This document shows, one piece after another, positions 46,345 through 50,347 of a stretch of DNA of 52,611 nucleotides (the first letter of the stretch is position 1; the number at the start of each line of letters is the position of its first letter). Source of the DNA: Pseudomonadota bacterium (GTDB lineage Bacteria > Pseudomonadota > Gammaproteobacteria > Burkholderiales > Burkholderiaceae_C); contig JAFEFZ010000316.1 in the NCBI GenBank assembly GCA_018240325.1, positions 1-52,611 on the forward strand, given 5' to 3'. A program made the translations under genes and the position numbers. The notes under the pieces were generated by a model. It worked only from the letters and a program-made list of their open reading frames with translations. It made no database searches and was not told the DNA's origin.

Positions 46345-46460
46345 GGCCGGCATTGTGCGCGGCGGTACGGCAGCAGCGCCGCGTCGCGGCCAAAGTCCGC
46401 GCCGACGCCCTTGACGCGGGCGGCGTCGCACCCCACATTGGCCTGTATCCGGAGGACGTG

Positions 46461-47306
46461 ATGACGCAACCGCATCGCCCGAGCGCAGTGGCCGGCCGCT
46501 TCTACCCAGCCGGCGCTGCGGCGCTGCGCGCCGAAGTGCAGCGCCTGCTCGATGCCGTCGATGCCGGCAGCGATGCCGCCGCGCCGGCGCCCAAGATGCT
46601 GGTGGTGCCGCATGCCGGCTACGTCTATTCGGGCGCGGTGGCGGCGCACGCCTATGCGCGCCTGGCGCGCCGGCGCAGGCAGTATCGCCGGGTGGTGCTG
46701 CTCGGCCCGGCCCACCATGCCGCGCTGCGCGGGCTGGCGCTGCCTGAGGCGGCGGCCTTCGACACGCCGCTCGGCGCGGTGCCGGTCGATGCCGAGGCCT
46801 GTGCGCGCGCGGCTGCGCTGCCCCAGGTGGTGCGCAGCGACGCGGTGCATGCGCACGAGCACGCGCTCGAGGTGCAGCTGCCCTTCCTGCAGACGGTGCT
46901 CGACCGCTTCACGCTGGTGCCGCTGGCGGTGGGGCAGGCGCCGGCCGAGGCGGTGGCCGAAGTGCTCGAGCGGCTGTGGGGCGGCGGCGAGACCCTGATC
47001 GTGATCAGCACCGACCTGTCGCACTATCTCGGCTACGGGCCGGCGCGGGTGGCCGACGCGCAGACGGTGCGGCAGATCCTGCAGCCGGGCCCGGCGATCA
47101 CCCACGAGCAGGCCTGCGGCGCCACGCCGCTGAACGGCGCCCTGCTCGCCGCACGGCGGCGCGGGCTGCAGCCGCGGCTGCTGGACCTGCGCAATTCGGG
47201 CGACACCGCCGGCGACCGCAGCCGCGTGGTCGGCTATGCGGCGCTGGTGTTCGCGCCGGGACAGGCCGCGATGCCGGCCGAGGCCGACGTCGATGCCGTG
47301 TGCTGA
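46461..47306 (+). CDS. amrB: AmmeMemoRadiSam system protein B (MEMO1-like)
   Basis: 281 residues. Residue motifs of the MEMO1 family are seen in order: SAVAGRFYPAG at the N-terminus, VVPHAGYVYSGAVAAHAYA, LGPAHHAALRG, HAHEHALEVQLPFLQ, and ISTDLSHYLGY. These His residues line the pocket related to extradiol dioxygenases and, in human MEMO1, bind metal. Activity is not settled. A GGAGGA ribosome-binding site stands before the ATG. It is the first of three tightly packed genes that make up the AmmeMemoRadiSam unit. Confidence 0.95.
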   Translation: MTQPHRPSAVAGRFYPAGAAALRAEVQRLLDAVDAGSDAAAPAPKMLVVPHAGYVYSGAVAAHAYARLARRRRQYRRVVLLGPAHHAALRGLALPEAAAFDTPLGAVPVDAEACARAAALPQVVRSDAVHAHEHALEVQLPFLQTVLDRFTLVPLAVGQAPAEAVAEVLERLWGGGETLIVISTDLSHYLGYGPARVADAQTVRQILQPGPAITHEQACGATPLNGALLAARRRGLQPRLLDLRNSGDTAGDRSRVVGYAALVFAPGQAAMPAEADVDAVC

Positions 47307-47844
47307 CACCCTCGGCCCGGCGCTGCTGAGCCGCGCGCGCAACGCGATCGCCGAGCGCTTCGACCGGGCGCGCGTGCCCGAGCCGGCGCACCCGGCACTG
47401 CGGCTGCCGGGTGCGACCTTCGTGACGCTGCACCGCGACGGCCGGCTGCGCGGCTGCATCGGCCGGCTGCGCGCCGAGTGCGCGCTCGACGACGACGTGC
47501 GCGCCAATGCCCGCGGCGCCGCCTTCGAGGATCCGCGCTTCGCGCCGTTGCTCGCGGCCGAATGGCGCGGCCTGAGCGTCGAGGTCTCGCTGCTCGAGCC
47601 GCCGCAGCCGCTGCCGGTGCGCGACGAGGCCGATGCGCGCGGGCAGCTGGAGCCCGGCGTCGATGGCGTGCTGCTCGAGTGGCGCGGCGCGCGCGCGACC
47701 TTCCTGCCGCAGGTGTGGGCGCAGCTGCCCGAGCCGGCGGATTTCCTGCGCGAGCTCAAGCGCAAGGCCGGCCTGGACGCCGGTTTCTGGCACGCCGAGT
47801 TGCGCCTGGCGCGCTACCGCGTGCGCCGGTTCACCGAGGGCTGA
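47293..47844 (+). CDS. amrA: AmmeMemoRadiSam system protein A (AMMECR1-like)
   Basis: 183 residues, a single AMMECR1 domain. The family signature LRGCIGRLRAE is at residues ~55-65, preceded by FVTLHRDGR and followed by DVRANARGAAFEDPRFAPL and LSVEVSLLEPP; FLPQVWAQLPEPADFLREL closes the fold. The biochemical role is unknown. The ATG at 47293 overlaps the end of the MEMO1-like gene by 14 bases. The radical SAM gene starts two bases after its stop, so all three should be translated together. Confidence 0.92.
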   Translation: MPCADTLGPALLSRARNAIAERFDRARVPEPAHPALRLPGATFVTLHRDGRLRGCIGRLRAECALDDDVRANARGAAFEDPRFAPLLAAEWRGLSVEVSLLEPPQPLPVRDEADARGQLEPGVDGVLLEWRGARATFLPQVWAQLPEPADFLRELKRKAGLDAGFWHAELRLARYRVRRFTEG

Positions 47845-47846
47845 GC

Positions 47847-48944
47847 GTGGGCGGGCGCGACCGTTTCGACGACGCGCGGCACCCGGCGCAGTGGTGGCAT
47901 GCGCTGCCCGACGGGCGGCTGCAGTGCGACCTGTGCCCGCGCGACTGCCGGCTGCACGACGGCCAGCGCGGCCTGTGCTTCGTGCGCGCGCGCGCCGGCG
48001 ACGAGATGGTGCTCACCACCTACGGGCGCAGCTCGGGCTTTTGCGTCGATCCGATCGAGAAGAAGCCGCTGAACCACTTCCTGCCCGGCAGCGCGGTGCT
48101 GAGCTTCGGCACCGCCGGCTGCAACCTGGCCTGCAAGTTCTGCCAGAACTGGGACATCAGCAAGAGCCGCGAGATGGACCGGCTGATGGACCGGGCGAGC
48201 CCGGCGCGCATCGCCGAGGCCGCGCGCGCGGCCGGCTGCGCGAGCGTGGCCTTCACCTACAACGACCCGGTGATCTTCGCCGAGTACGCGCTCGATGCGG
48301 CCGACGCCTGCCGCGCGCTGGGCGTGCAGACGGTCGCGGTGACGGCCGGCTACATCCACCCGGAGCCGCGGCGCGCCTTCTTCGCGAAGATGGACGCCGC
48401 CAACATCGACCTGAAGGCCTTCAGCGACGATTTCTATTTCCGCCAGACCGGCGCGCACCTGGCGCCGGTGCTCGACACCTTGCAGTACGTCCGGCACGAC
48501 ACCGGCTGCTGGCTCGAGATCACCACGCTGCTGATCCCGGGGCTGAACGACAGCGATGCCGAGCTGGACGCGATGACGCGCTGGCTGGCGGACCACCTGG
48601 GGCCCGAGGTGCCGCTGCACTTCAGCGCCTTCCACCCCGACTACAAGCTCACCGAGGTGGCGCGCACGCCCGCGGCGACGCTGCAGCGCGCGCGCCGGAT
48701 CGCGCGCGCCAACGGGCTGCGGCACGTGTACACCGGCAACGTGCACGACCTGGAAGGTGGCACCACCTGCTGCACCGGCTGCGGCGCGGCGCTGATCGAG
48801 CGCGACTGGCACCGGATCCGGCGCTACGAATTGCGCGCCGACGGCTGCTGCCCGCACTGCGGCAGCGCGCTGGCCGGGCGCTTCGGCGCTGCGCCGGGCG
48901 GCTTCGACGGGCGGCGCGTGCCGGTGCGGCTGCGGATGGATTGA
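47847..48944 (+). CDS. amrS: AmmeMemoRadiSam system radical SAM enzyme
   Basis: 365 residues with a GTG start (MGGRDRFDDARHPAQWW), chosen because it follows the previous stop by two bases. The [4Fe-4S]/SAM motif is CNLACKFCQNW (C92, C96, C99). An N-terminal CDLCPRDCRLHDGQRGLC cluster and a C-terminal pair (CCTGCGAAL and CCPHCGSAL) give extra cysteines, which may bind auxiliary clusters or zinc. It resembles PFL-activating-enzyme-type radical SAM proteins. The substrate is unknown; the operon suggests that the AMMECR1- and MEMO1-like proteins support or use its product. Confidence 0.94.
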   Translation: MGGRDRFDDARHPAQWWHALPDGRLQCDLCPRDCRLHDGQRGLCFVRARAGDEMVLTTYGRSSGFCVDPIEKKPLNHFLPGSAVLSFGTAGCNLACKFCQNWDISKSREMDRLMDRASPARIAEAARAAGCASVAFTYNDPVIFAEYALDAADACRALGVQTVAVTAGYIHPEPRRAFFAKMDAANIDLKAFSDDFYFRQTGAHLAPVLDTLQYVRHDTGCWLEITTLLIPGLNDSDAELDAMTRWLADHLGPEVPLHFSAFHPDYKLTEVARTPAATLQRARRIARANGLRHVYTGNVHDLEGGTTCCTGCGAALIERDWHRIRRYELRADGCCPHCGSALAGRFGAAPGGFDGRRVPVRLRMD

Positions 48945-49081
48945 GCACTGCTGCGACGGCCGGGCCGGATCCGGCTGCCGGCCGTCGGTCGTCGGTCGTC
49001 GGGAGGCGAGGGGTTGGCAGTAGTGGGCATGCTTTCCTGAGAAGAAGCGCTCCTCTTTCGGTCGGCTTTTCGGTCCCTTGC

Positions 49082-49110
49082 GGCCGTTCGCTGTTGCAGC
49101 GAAAGCGGCC
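49082..49110. repeat. Hairpin (GGCCG-TTCGCTG/CAGCGAA-CGGCC)
   Basis: A 7-bp perfect stem (TTCGCTG/CAGCGAA) with a 3-base loop is extended by complementary GGCCG and CGGCC after a small bulge. No T-run follows. It could be part of a repeat family or a small RNA. Confidence 0.55.
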
Positions 49111-49149
49111 ATCCTTCGGCAGCGAAAACGTGCTGCACGGGGCCGCCGA

Positions 49150-49260
49150 CGGGGTGGCCAACTCCGTTCAGCCAAATTCTTATTGGCTCCGGCATCACAT
49201 CGCTGCGCGATATGAGCCTTCACCGAAGCGCTGCGCGCTTTCACTCCGTTGGCCACCCCG
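49150..49260. repeat. Inverted repeat pair enclosing the 21-bp repeat
   Basis: The arms CGGGGTGGCCAAC (49150-49162) and GTTGGCCACCCCG (49248-49260) are perfectly complementary over 13 bases and extend outward with imperfect pairing (GGGGCCGCCGA / CGGGCCGACGG). The loop of ~85 bases contains the dispersed word at 49196-49216, so the whole unit looks like a stand-alone repeat element. Confidence 0.65.
49196..49216. repeat. 21-bp dispersed repeat, copy 2
   Basis: Identical to 23358-23378, lying between the arms of the 49150/49248 inverted repeat and followed by GAGCCTTCAC, the word that precedes copy 1. Confidence 0.75.
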
Positions 49261-49576
49261 CCGTCGGCCCGGGCGGTGGTACACCGAGACCGCTGTTCGC
49301 GCGCTGCTCGACGCAGTGGGGGTTTGCTGAAGAAGCGCGCTGGCGGTGCCGGCTTTGCCTCAGCGGCCCCGAAACGCAGCGACGAACAGCGGACCCTGCG
49401 AAAGTCAGCACCCGCCCAACAGCGGCCGTCGGAATCTGGCGTTTCTGGCGCTTCATGTGTTGCGGGTGTCGCGTCGGCACCCTGCACAACTGAAGTGCAC
49501 GCGCAAGGGGACGAGGAAACCGGCAGCGACCCGTCGTTCCTCGAGCGCGCGCCGCGGCGGCCCGACAATCCGGCCG

Positions 49577-50347
49577 ATGCCCGACATGCTGGCCGGCTGG
49601 CCGCTGATCACCGCGCCTGCGTTCTACGCGCTGGCCGTGCCGGCCGTGCTGCTGATGGGGCTGGGCAAGAGCGGCTTCCTGTCGGGCTTCGGTGCGCTGG
49701 CCACGCCGCTGCTGGCGCTGGTGGTGCCGGTACCGCAGGCGGCGGCGATCATGCTGCCGCTGCTGCTGCTCATGGACGCCACCGGGCTGCAGCAGCTGTG
49801 GCGCGAGCGCGATCCGGCGCTGCTGCGCCGGCTGCTGCCGCCGGGGCTCGTGGGCATCGGCGTGGGCACGTTGCTGTTCGGCGCGTTGTCGGCCCAGGCG
49901 ACGGCCGGCGTCGTCGGCGCGCTGACGCTGGCCTTCCTCGCGCAGCGGCTGCTGTTCGCGCCGCGTGCCGGCTCGCCGCCGCTGCCGGGCTGGGCGGCGC
50001 AGGGCCTGGCCGTCGCGTCGGGCTTCACCAGCTTCGTCGCGCACGCCGGCAGCCCGCCGCTGAACGCCTACCTGCTGCCGTTGAGGCTGCCGCCGATGCG
50101 CTTCGCCGGCACCAGCGCCGTGTTCTTCGCCGCGATCAACCTCGCCAAGTGGGGGCCCTACGCGGCGCTGGGGCTGCTCGACCGCGCCAACCTGGCGACT
50201 TCGCTGCTGCTCGCGCCGCTGGCGCCGATGGGCGTGTGGCTCGGCGTGTTCCTGGCGCGCCGGATCCACGCGACCTGGTACTACCGCGTCGCCTACGCCG
50301 GCATGTTCTTCACCGGCTGCAAGCTGTTGGCCGACGGGCTGCGCTGA
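49577..50347 (+). CDS. TauE/SafE-family sulfite or organosulfonate exporter
   Basis: 256 residues with about eight membrane helices. LLMGLGKSGFLSGFGALATPLLA near residue 25 and the later GFTSFVAHAGSPPLNAYLLP are the two repeated halves of the TauE/SafE (DUF81) fold. Family members export sulfite, sulfoacetate or related anions; the substrate is not determined here. The start at 49577 (MPDMLAGWPL) begins at the first helix; an ATG at 49586 is an alternative. Confidence 0.87.
   Translation: MPDMLAGWPLITAPAFYALAVPAVLLMGLGKSGFLSGFGALATPLLALVVPVPQAAAIMLPLLLLMDATGLQQLWRERDPALLRRLLPPGLVGIGVGTLLFGALSAQATAGVVGALTLAFLAQRLLFAPRAGSPPLPGWAAQGLAVASGFTSFVAHAGSPPLNAYLLPLRLPPMRFAGTSAVFFAAINLAKWGPYAALGLLDRANLATSLLLAPLAPMGVWLGVFLARRIHATWYYRVAYAGMFFTGCKLLADGLR

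What the first reader, a model, noticed from the sequence alone, without database searches (positions are those of the whole stretch)
46461..48944. Complete AmmeMemoRadiSam operon, an under-characterised three-protein system
Seen: a MEMO1-like gene, an AMMECR1-like gene overlapping it by 14 bases, and a radical SAM gene two bases later, all with intact family motifs. Known: the trio is conserved from archaea to bacteria, yet the reaction is not established. Inference: the AMMECR1- and MEMO1-like proteins bind the substrate or product of the radical SAM enzyme, perhaps in RNA or small-molecule modification. The extra Cys clusters at both ends of the SAM enzyme suggest auxiliary metal sites.
Basis: partly seen in the sequence, partly recalled or inferred. 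Interest (0 to 1): 0.72.

Follow-up and report, generated by a model that had tools for sequence, protein, structure and literature searches.

The report
Ordinary AmmeMemoRadiSam (amrB-amrA-amrS) operon
Three adjacent genes here are a normal copy of a widespread but still unexplained system (relatives of human MEMO1 and AMMECR1 beside a radical enzyme), and comparing relatives suggests the first two proteins form one iron-binding unit that works with, but not always in the same compartment as, the radical enzyme.

Summary
AmrB (MEMO1-like, 46461-47306), AmrA (AMMECR1-like, 47293-47844) and AmrS (radical SAM, 47847-48944) pass the curated NCBIfam cut-offs of the AmmeMemoRadiSam families (260 vs 26, 185 vs 99, 626 vs 220 bits). 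The 14-base overlap and 2-base gap are exact. It is a new member of a known, named but biochemically unexplained system. Of 219 sampled genomes of the phylum, 92 have any of the three and 79 have all three. The MEMO1-type iron ligands (H51, H85, C219), the AmrA LRGC cysteine (C55) and the N-terminal AmrS cysteines are nearly invariant. AmrB-AmrA fusions occur in 18 of 80 related loci; one modelled fusion is rigid (pLDDT 96.5, pTM 0.89). The C-terminal AmrS cysteines look like a zinc ribbon. New lead: 13 of 141 AmrB N-termini, all fused, carry Sec-like leaders; 0 of 128 AmrS do, so the partners can sit in different compartments. AmrS may act first, making a substrate or maturing AmrBA before export. 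The substrate is unknown; nothing here supports RNA modification. Interest is moderate, for the leads rather than this copy.

The parts
46451..46455 (+). GGAGG Shine-Dalgarno-like sequence before amrB
   Evidence: sequence printed; 5 bases before ATG 46461
46461..47306 (+). amrB, MEMO1-like protein, 281 aa
   Evidence: TIGR04336 260.3 bits, Pfam Memo 161.8 bits
46611..46613 (+). codon of AmrB H51, equivalent of MEMO1 iron ligand H49
   Evidence: alignment to 7kq8; ligands from PMC11081632; H in 143 of 147
46713..46715 (+). codon of AmrB H85, equivalent of MEMO1 iron ligand H81
   Evidence: H in 144 of 147
47115..47117 (+). codon of AmrB C219, equivalent of MEMO1 iron ligand C244
   Evidence: C in 143 of 147, S in 4
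47293..47844 (+). amrA, AMMECR1-like protein, 183 aa, overlaps amrB by 14 bases
   Evidence: TIGR04335 184.6 bits, Pfam AMMECR1 142.8 bits
47446..47463 (+). LRGCIG motif of AmrA (residues 52-57) with the nearly invariant cysteine C55
   Evidence: C55 in 18 of 18 in A5 and in 143 of 148
47847..48944 (+). amrS, radical SAM enzyme, 365 aa, GTG start
   Evidence: TIGR04337 626.3 bits; model pLDDT 87.6, pTM 0.90
47925..47978 (+). N-terminal four-cysteine motif CX2CX3CX9C of AmrS (C27, C30, C34, C44)
   Evidence: 129, 126, 129, 129 of 129
48120..48143 (+). CX3CX2C motif for the SAM-binding [4Fe-4S] cluster (C92, C96, C99)
   Evidence: 129 of 129 each
48771..48860 (+). C-terminal CX2C-X22-CX2C, zinc-ribbon-like (C309, C312, C335, C338)
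   Evidence: 127, 116, 127, 127 of 129; Asp at 312 in 11; missing from Segatella P0004 and from the interrupted L093 frame

Best explanation
This is an intact AmmeMemoRadiSam operon (amrB-amrA-amrS). Shown: family membership, gene order, conserved motifs. Predicted: AmrA and AmrB dock as one rigid unit, with a MEMO1-type 2-His-1-Cys iron site in AmrB and an invariant thiol in the AmrA LRGC strand. Inferred: AmrS, a radical SAM enzyme whose nearest fold is pyruvate formate-lyase activating enzyme and which probably carries a second, N-terminal Fe-S cluster, acts first in the cytosol on a small organic molecule, and the iron-thiol AmrBA unit then processes that product by oxygen-independent chemistry. 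The substrate is not identified.
For: Families and order. Co-occurrence in 219 genomes: AmrB with AmrA in 86, AmrS with both in 79; Fisher p 9.8e-45 for AmrS with AmrB, not corrected for relatedness. AmrB-AmrA fusions in 18 of 80 loci; no frame joins AmrS to either partner. Fusion model pLDDT 96.5, pTM 0.89, matching MEMO1 and AMMECR1 structures. Iron ligands conserved. The four fusions that lost AmrB C219 also lost AmrA C55 (L189-L192), which ties the two sites together. AmrB is present in strict anaerobes among the controls (physiology recalled), so O2-dependent ring cleavage cannot be the general reaction. AmrS: the three best Foldseek hits, 3cb8, 8fo0 and 3c8f, are PFL-activating enzyme.
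Against: No substrate and no universal pathway neighbour: a cluster of hydrolase-like genes follows amrS in 23 of 80 loci, but only 16 of those 23 have a GxSxG motif and a member without it matched no Pfam family; here the next gene is a TauE/SafE-type one. Intact AmrS without AmrA or AmrB in two genomes at least 99% complete, G200 and G022, and AmrB without AmrA in G174. In one clade AmrBA is probably exported while AmrS is not, which is awkward for a handed-over cytosolic intermediate. The four concerted losses are one clade (support 1.0), so perhaps one event, and L045 lost C55 alone.
Confidence: 0.4

Rival explanations
1. AmrS is a maturase. It modifies AmrB-AmrA itself in the cytosol (for example at AmrA C55 in the LRGC strand or at the AmrB metal cysteine), as PFL-activating enzyme acts on its protein and anaerobic sulfatase maturase acts on sulfatases before export (the sulfatase comparison is recalled).
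For: Nearest fold and nearest other families are protein-modifying activases. A clade of fused AmrBA has Sec-like leaders (13 of 141 AmrB N-termini, all 13 fused, 0 of 74 separate), while the same rule flags 0 of 128 AmrS; 8 of the 13 have a group-2 AmrS in the same locus. A Segatella plasmid operon shows the same split. AmrB plus AmrA without AmrS was seen only in 7 genomes, six at most 78% complete and one 96% complete with 6% contamination.
Against: Intact AmrS without any AmrB or AmrA in G200 and G022. AmrA without AmrS in the Haloferax control, and AMMECR1 and MEMO1 without AmrS in humans (recalled). Five of the 13 leader-bearing AmrBA (L045, L184, L185, L186, L188) have no AmrS in the held stretch. 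LRGCIG lies in a predicted strand, not in a free tail.
Confidence: 0.22
2. The trio modifies a nucleobase, nucleotide or isoprenoid, as proposed from gene neighbourhoods by Burroughs et al. 2019.
For: Phosphoribosyltransferase-type genes within the held flanks of 10 of 80 loci and IspD- or IspF-type genes in 13 of 80 (one or two representatives of each checked with Pfam). The proposal itself is recalled from that abstract; the paper is not held but is cited in PMC7694686.
Against: These neighbours are found in a minority of loci of a proteobacteria-heavy set and may be simple synteny. The genes checked beside the window operon (six between 43392 and 52315) include none of them, and none of seven window flank genes has a convincing counterpart in the related loci.
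Confidence: 0.2
3. AmrB is an O2-dependent extradiol dioxygenase and AmrS feeds it a catechol-like substrate.
For: Same fold family: Foldseek hits DOPA, aminophenol and gallate dioxygenases at E 3.5e-7 to 1.4e-5.
Against: Third ligand is Cys, not Glu; no dioxygenase activity was found for human MEMO1 on the substrates tried (PMC11081632, passages); family present in anaerobes (physiology recalled).
Confidence: 0.07
4. AmrB is an Fe(II) hydrolase of the peptide-deformylase kind (2-His-1-Cys iron), acting on an amide made by AmrS.
For: Ligand set 2 His + 1 Cys; the deformylase comparison is recalled; an origin of the superfamily in a nucleoside phosphorylase/hydrolase-peptide/amidohydrolase fold is stated in PMC7694686 (passage).
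Against: The deformylase fold is different (recalled); ligand set alone is weak; no substrate.
Confidence: 0.1

Closest known systems
AmmeMemoRadiSam system (amrS, amrB, amrA; TIGR04337, TIGR04336, TIGR04335)
   Same: All three families well over cut-off; gene order as in 65 of 80 related loci; nearest relative found, Quisquiliibacterium transsilvanicum, 83% identity in AmrS
   Different: Nothing that sets this copy apart; AmrB and AmrA are separate here but fused in that nearest relative
Human MEMO1 (PDB 7kq8, 3bcz)
   Same: Fold and iron ligands H49, H81, C244
   Different: No AmrS partner in humans (recalled); signalling roles not testable here
AMMECR1 family structures PH0010 (1vaj), MM0484 (1zq7), ST0229 (1wsc)
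   Same: Fold and sequence
   Different: Archaeal; function also unknown (arCOG01336 listed as a top-priority uncharacterized protein in PMC6393860, passage)
Pyruvate formate-lyase activating enzyme (3cb8, 8fo0, 3c8f)
   Same: Radical SAM core, best Foldseek hit, E 3.5e-12, TM by target 0.78
   Different: 18% identity, extra N-terminal four-Cys motif and C-terminal ribbon, far below the TIGR02493 cut-off (53 vs 232 bits)
Extradiol dioxygenases of the LigB/PCAD superfamily (DesB, APD, DOPA dioxygenase)
   Same: Shared fold with AmrB
   Different: Cys instead of Glu as third iron ligand

Membership tests
AmmeMemoRadiSam system | protein B over TIGR04336 cut-off | tested here: met
   260.3 vs 26 bits
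AmmeMemoRadiSam system | protein A over TIGR04335 cut-off | tested here: met
   184.6 vs 99 bits
AmmeMemoRadiSam system | radical SAM enzyme over TIGR04337 cut-off | tested here: met
   626.3 vs 220 bits
AmmeMemoRadiSam system | three genes adjacent and co-directional | tested here: met
   46461-48944 + strand; the same in 65 of 80 loci counting fusions
AmmeMemoRadiSam system | shared biochemical reaction | not testable with these tools
   no reaction found in the open library listings and passages seen
MEMO1 family | iron ligands H49, H81, C244 | tested here: met
   H51, H85, C219
Radical SAM superfamily | CX3CX2C | tested here: met
   C92-X3-C96-X2-C99
Glycyl-radical-enzyme activases (TIGR02493) | score over curated cut-off | tested here: not met
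   53.3 vs 231.75 bits
Extradiol dioxygenases (LigB type) | 2-His-1-Glu iron site | tested here: not met
   Cys at the third position
SPASM/twitch radical SAM enzymes | C-terminal auxiliary Fe-S domain | tested here: inconclusive
   C-terminal CX2C..CX2C looks like a zinc ribbon; metal not determined; no SPASM family among the NCBIfam or Pfam hits
AmrS with auxiliary N-terminal Fe-S cluster | cluster present in purified protein | not testable with these tools
   motif only

The most novel reading that the evidence does not exclude
AmrS is a maturase for AmrBA: it installs a radical-derived modification on the invariant AmrA LRGC cysteine strand or the AmrB metal cysteine in the cytosol, after which some lineages export the matured, fused AmrBA iron enzyme. 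MEMO1 and AMMECR1 would then be two halves of one enzyme whose activity has been missed because the unmatured form was assayed.
Probability: 0.15. Interest if true: 0.85.

Novelty: new member of a known kind. Interest (0 to 1): 0.38.

Why it matters
Human MEMO1 and AMMECR1 have no agreed primary biochemical activity (for MEMO1 stated in the abstract of PMC11081632; for AMMECR1 recalled). The bacterial system keeps both with a radical SAM partner. Concrete tests follow: does AmrA bind AmrB, do C55 and C219 meet at one site, and does AmrBA carry an AmrS-dependent mass change? An answer would bear on two human protein families and on an uncharacterized protein present in most archaea (429 of 524 genomes, PMC6393860).

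Tried and rejected
Selenocysteine: ten group-2 AmrS hits were flagged with one in-frame TGA. Reading it as U showed it is the ordinary stop codon just after the conserved GVW end. Rejected.

Reaching archaea through L061, a MAG titled Halobacteria: its phylum sample held many matches at the same contig positions as the window's own phylum sample (for example C3:149137-150180 and C9:10263-11306), so the MAG title is doubtful; one search is not used for counts. No archaeal locus was read; the archaeal claim rests on the control genomes.

Linking the reaction to a neighbour: a single-linkage cluster of hydrolase-like genes follows amrS on the same strand in 23 of 80 loci (24 with L110, where it lies elsewhere); 17 of the 24 have GxSxG, the representative L076 passes Pfam DLH (30.2 vs 21 bits), but L095, without the motif, matches no Pfam family, so the cluster is mixed. 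PRTase-type genes in 10 loci, IspD/IspF-type in 13, and a solute-binding protein, a permease and a YdjM-like gene beside unlinked AmrBA fusions. Cluster names rest on one or two Pfam-checked representatives. None is universal or seen beside the window operon; not used as proof.

Viral contigs: one short match (35 residues, 57%, L033); a scan with the fusion alignment was impossible. Structure comparison by VIA-align was not available.

Rows dropped before counts: L001, L002, L003 and L194 as own-genome or duplicate copies (n = 129 AmrS, 147 AmrB, 148 AmrA, incomplete ones included, window not counted); L134-L163 as repeats of earlier genomes (onward). The regex counts were replaced by the alignment counts, because five long reading frames had been misjudged. 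The leader test covers 141 AmrB whose N-terminus was held; L041 was not assessable, and L039 falls below the threshold although a leader-like stretch is visible. It is a simple hydropathy rule, not a trained predictor.
Full report
What is there. NCBIfam names them AmmeMemoRadiSam system protein B, protein A and radical SAM enzyme, each well over its curated cut-off. Gene names in use are amrB, amrA and amrS (PMC9062700, one figure legend seen; plasmid annotation of amrB and amrS). GGAGG precedes amrB by 5 bases. No promoter or terminator consensus was found, which says little at 73% GC.

The genome. The window is one whole contig (C240) of a 4.18 Mb genome with one AmrS (the second, weak match is another radical SAM protein). 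The best match in genome contigs is Quisquiliibacterium transsilvanicum, 83% identity; in the AmrS tree the window pairs with it at support 0.885. Within the window's family amrS is patchy: 22 of 150 genomes pass the cut-off, and the one same-genus genome among the rows shown, G311, has none (106 negative genomes are not listed). None of seven flanking window genes has a convincing counterpart in the other loci; only weak HD and response-regulator matches (26-32% identity) appeared. So the operon behaves like a portable three-gene cassette whose present neighbours say little about its work. Base composition is ordinary.

One system. In 219 genomes of the phylum, amrS passes its cut-off in 85, amrB in 87, amrA in 87; 79 have all three and 92 have any. 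Exceptions: amrS alone in G022, G130, G200 and G217 (in G217 the frame is interrupted and in pieces; the G130 gene is of a divergent type); amrS and amrB without amrA in G174; amrS and amrA in G184, where amrA is cut by the contig end; amrB and amrA without amrS in seven genomes, six at most 78% complete and G145 at 96% with 6% contamination. Fisher p-values ignore relatedness. No fusion with AmrS was seen.

AmrB and AmrA as a unit. H51, H85 and C219 align with the iron ligands H49, H81 and C244 of human MEMO1 (ligands from PMC11081632, passages). They are kept in 143, 144 and 143 of 147 sequences, and D185 in all 147. The AmrA cysteine C55 of LRGCIG is kept in 143 of 148. The four fusions L189-L192 have lost AmrB C219 and all four have lost AmrA C55; one other, L045, lost C55 alone. 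The four form one clade (support 1.0), so this may be one event. AlphaFold2 of a natural fusion with a very short linker (L078, 445 aa) gave mean pLDDT 96.5 and pTM 0.89. Foldseek finds MEMO1, then AMMECR1 structures, then TK2203, extradiol dioxygenases and JW3007.

AmrS. The model is good (pLDDT 87.6, pTM 0.90) and closest to pyruvate formate-lyase activating enzyme. No solved structure covers the whole protein by sequence. Cysteines 27, 30, 34 and 44 are kept in 129, 126, 129 and 129 of 129; the three exceptions (Ser at 30; L048-L050) form a divergent clade (support 1.0). Two of its genomes, G022 and G130, have no AmrA or AmrB match; the third, G069, has both. This pattern suits an auxiliary [4Fe-4S] cluster; that is inference. 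The C-terminal four cysteines look like a zinc ribbon: group-2 enzymes have Asp at one position (11 of 129) and the Segatella enzyme (295 aa) ends before it.

Compartments. Of 141 AmrB N-termini held, 13 begin with a Sec-like hydrophobic leader by a simple hydropathy rule; all 13 are AmrBA fusions, none of 74 separate AmrB has one. The same rule flags 0 of 128 AmrS N-termini, and all 11 group-2 AmrS have a possible start codon 5 residues before the first cysteine, though some also have earlier ones. All 13 lie in one clade of 21 (support 1.0) that also holds members without a leader, such as L189-L192. Eight of the 13 share a locus with a group-2 AmrS (L034, L035, L036, L037, L038, L040, L042, L043; in L037 about 9 kb away); five (L045, L184, L185, L186, L188) have no AmrS in the held stretch. 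L039 shows a leader below the threshold and L041 could not be judged. A Segatella plasmid operon shows the same split by the same rule: its AmrBA passes, its AmrS does not; its AmrB lies outside the clade of 21. I saw no mention of this in the papers listed or read in passages; the most relevant paper, Burroughs et al. 2019, was not held, so it may be described there.

How it most likely works. The family occurs in strict anaerobes among the controls (physiology recalled), so an oxygen-dependent ring cleavage by AmrB is unlikely as the general reaction. I favour AmrS acting first by radical chemistry on a small molecule, with AmrBA, an iron-thiol unit, acting second (0.4). The chief rival is that AmrS matures AmrBA itself; the leader pattern favours it, the intact AmrS without partners in G200 and G022 and the five leader-bearing AmrBA without a nearby AmrS speak against it. 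Nucleobase or isoprenoid modification (recalled from the abstract of Burroughs et al. 2019) is not excluded; PRTase-type genes in 10 and IspD/IspF-type genes in 13 of 80 loci are a minority.

Literature. Five open papers contain AmmeMemoRadiSam, one occurrence each; by title none is a study of the system. PMC7159879 (passages) says a radical SAM domain related to that of the Memo-Ammecr1 systems serves peptide-processing conflict systems. PMC6393860 (passage) lists archaeal AMMECR1 as a priority unknown. PMC12710340 (passage) notes Memo-like domains fused to RiPP recognition elements. The library holds only open-licence papers.

Verdict. Real, correctly described, and an ordinary member of a known system whose reaction is still open in what could be searched.

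Noticed in passing
L034-L038, L040, L042, L043, L045, L184-L186, L188; also L204: AmrB-AmrA fusions with Sec-like leaders or membrane anchors; 8 of the 13 (and L204) lie in a locus with a leaderless AmrS.
   Followed up: partly
L189-L192: AmrBA fusions with both the MEMO iron-site Cys and the AMMECR1 LRGC Cys lost; one degenerate paralogue clade without leaders.
   Followed up: partly
L048, L049, L050: Divergent AmrS relatives with Ser for the second N-terminal Cys, beside Cys/Met-metabolism PLP enzyme genes (L048, L050), an aminotransferase (L048) or AMP-binding enzyme genes (L049, L050): possible small-molecule pathways.
   Followed up: partly
24 loci between L063 and L122: Cluster of hydrolase-like genes, directly downstream of amrS on the same strand in 23, elsewhere in L110; 17 have GxSxG, one representative passes Pfam DLH, one without the motif matches no Pfam family.
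   Followed up: partly
L035, L036, L044: Large protein beside group-2 AmrS; the L044 copy matches spermidine-synthase-like, FMN_bind and Fer4_5 domains, a possible electron-transfer partner.
   Followed up: no
loci among L164-L203: AmrBA fusions unlinked to amrS, often beside genes for an extracellular solute-binding protein, a permease and a YdjM-like protein.
   Followed up: no
L061: MAG titled Halobacteria archaeon carries a betaproteobacterial-like operon (71% identity to the window AmrS), and its phylum sample overlaps the window's: title doubtful.
   Followed up: partly
window 49346-50347 and L205 7103-7957: A Pfam TauE gene next to amrS both here and on an Ideonella plasmid, but in different orientation and with no meaningful blastp similarity (best E 9.9), so probably coincidence.
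   Followed up: yes
window 48945-49345: Intergenic stretch after amrS with GC 0.668 against 0.727 for the window.
   Followed up: no
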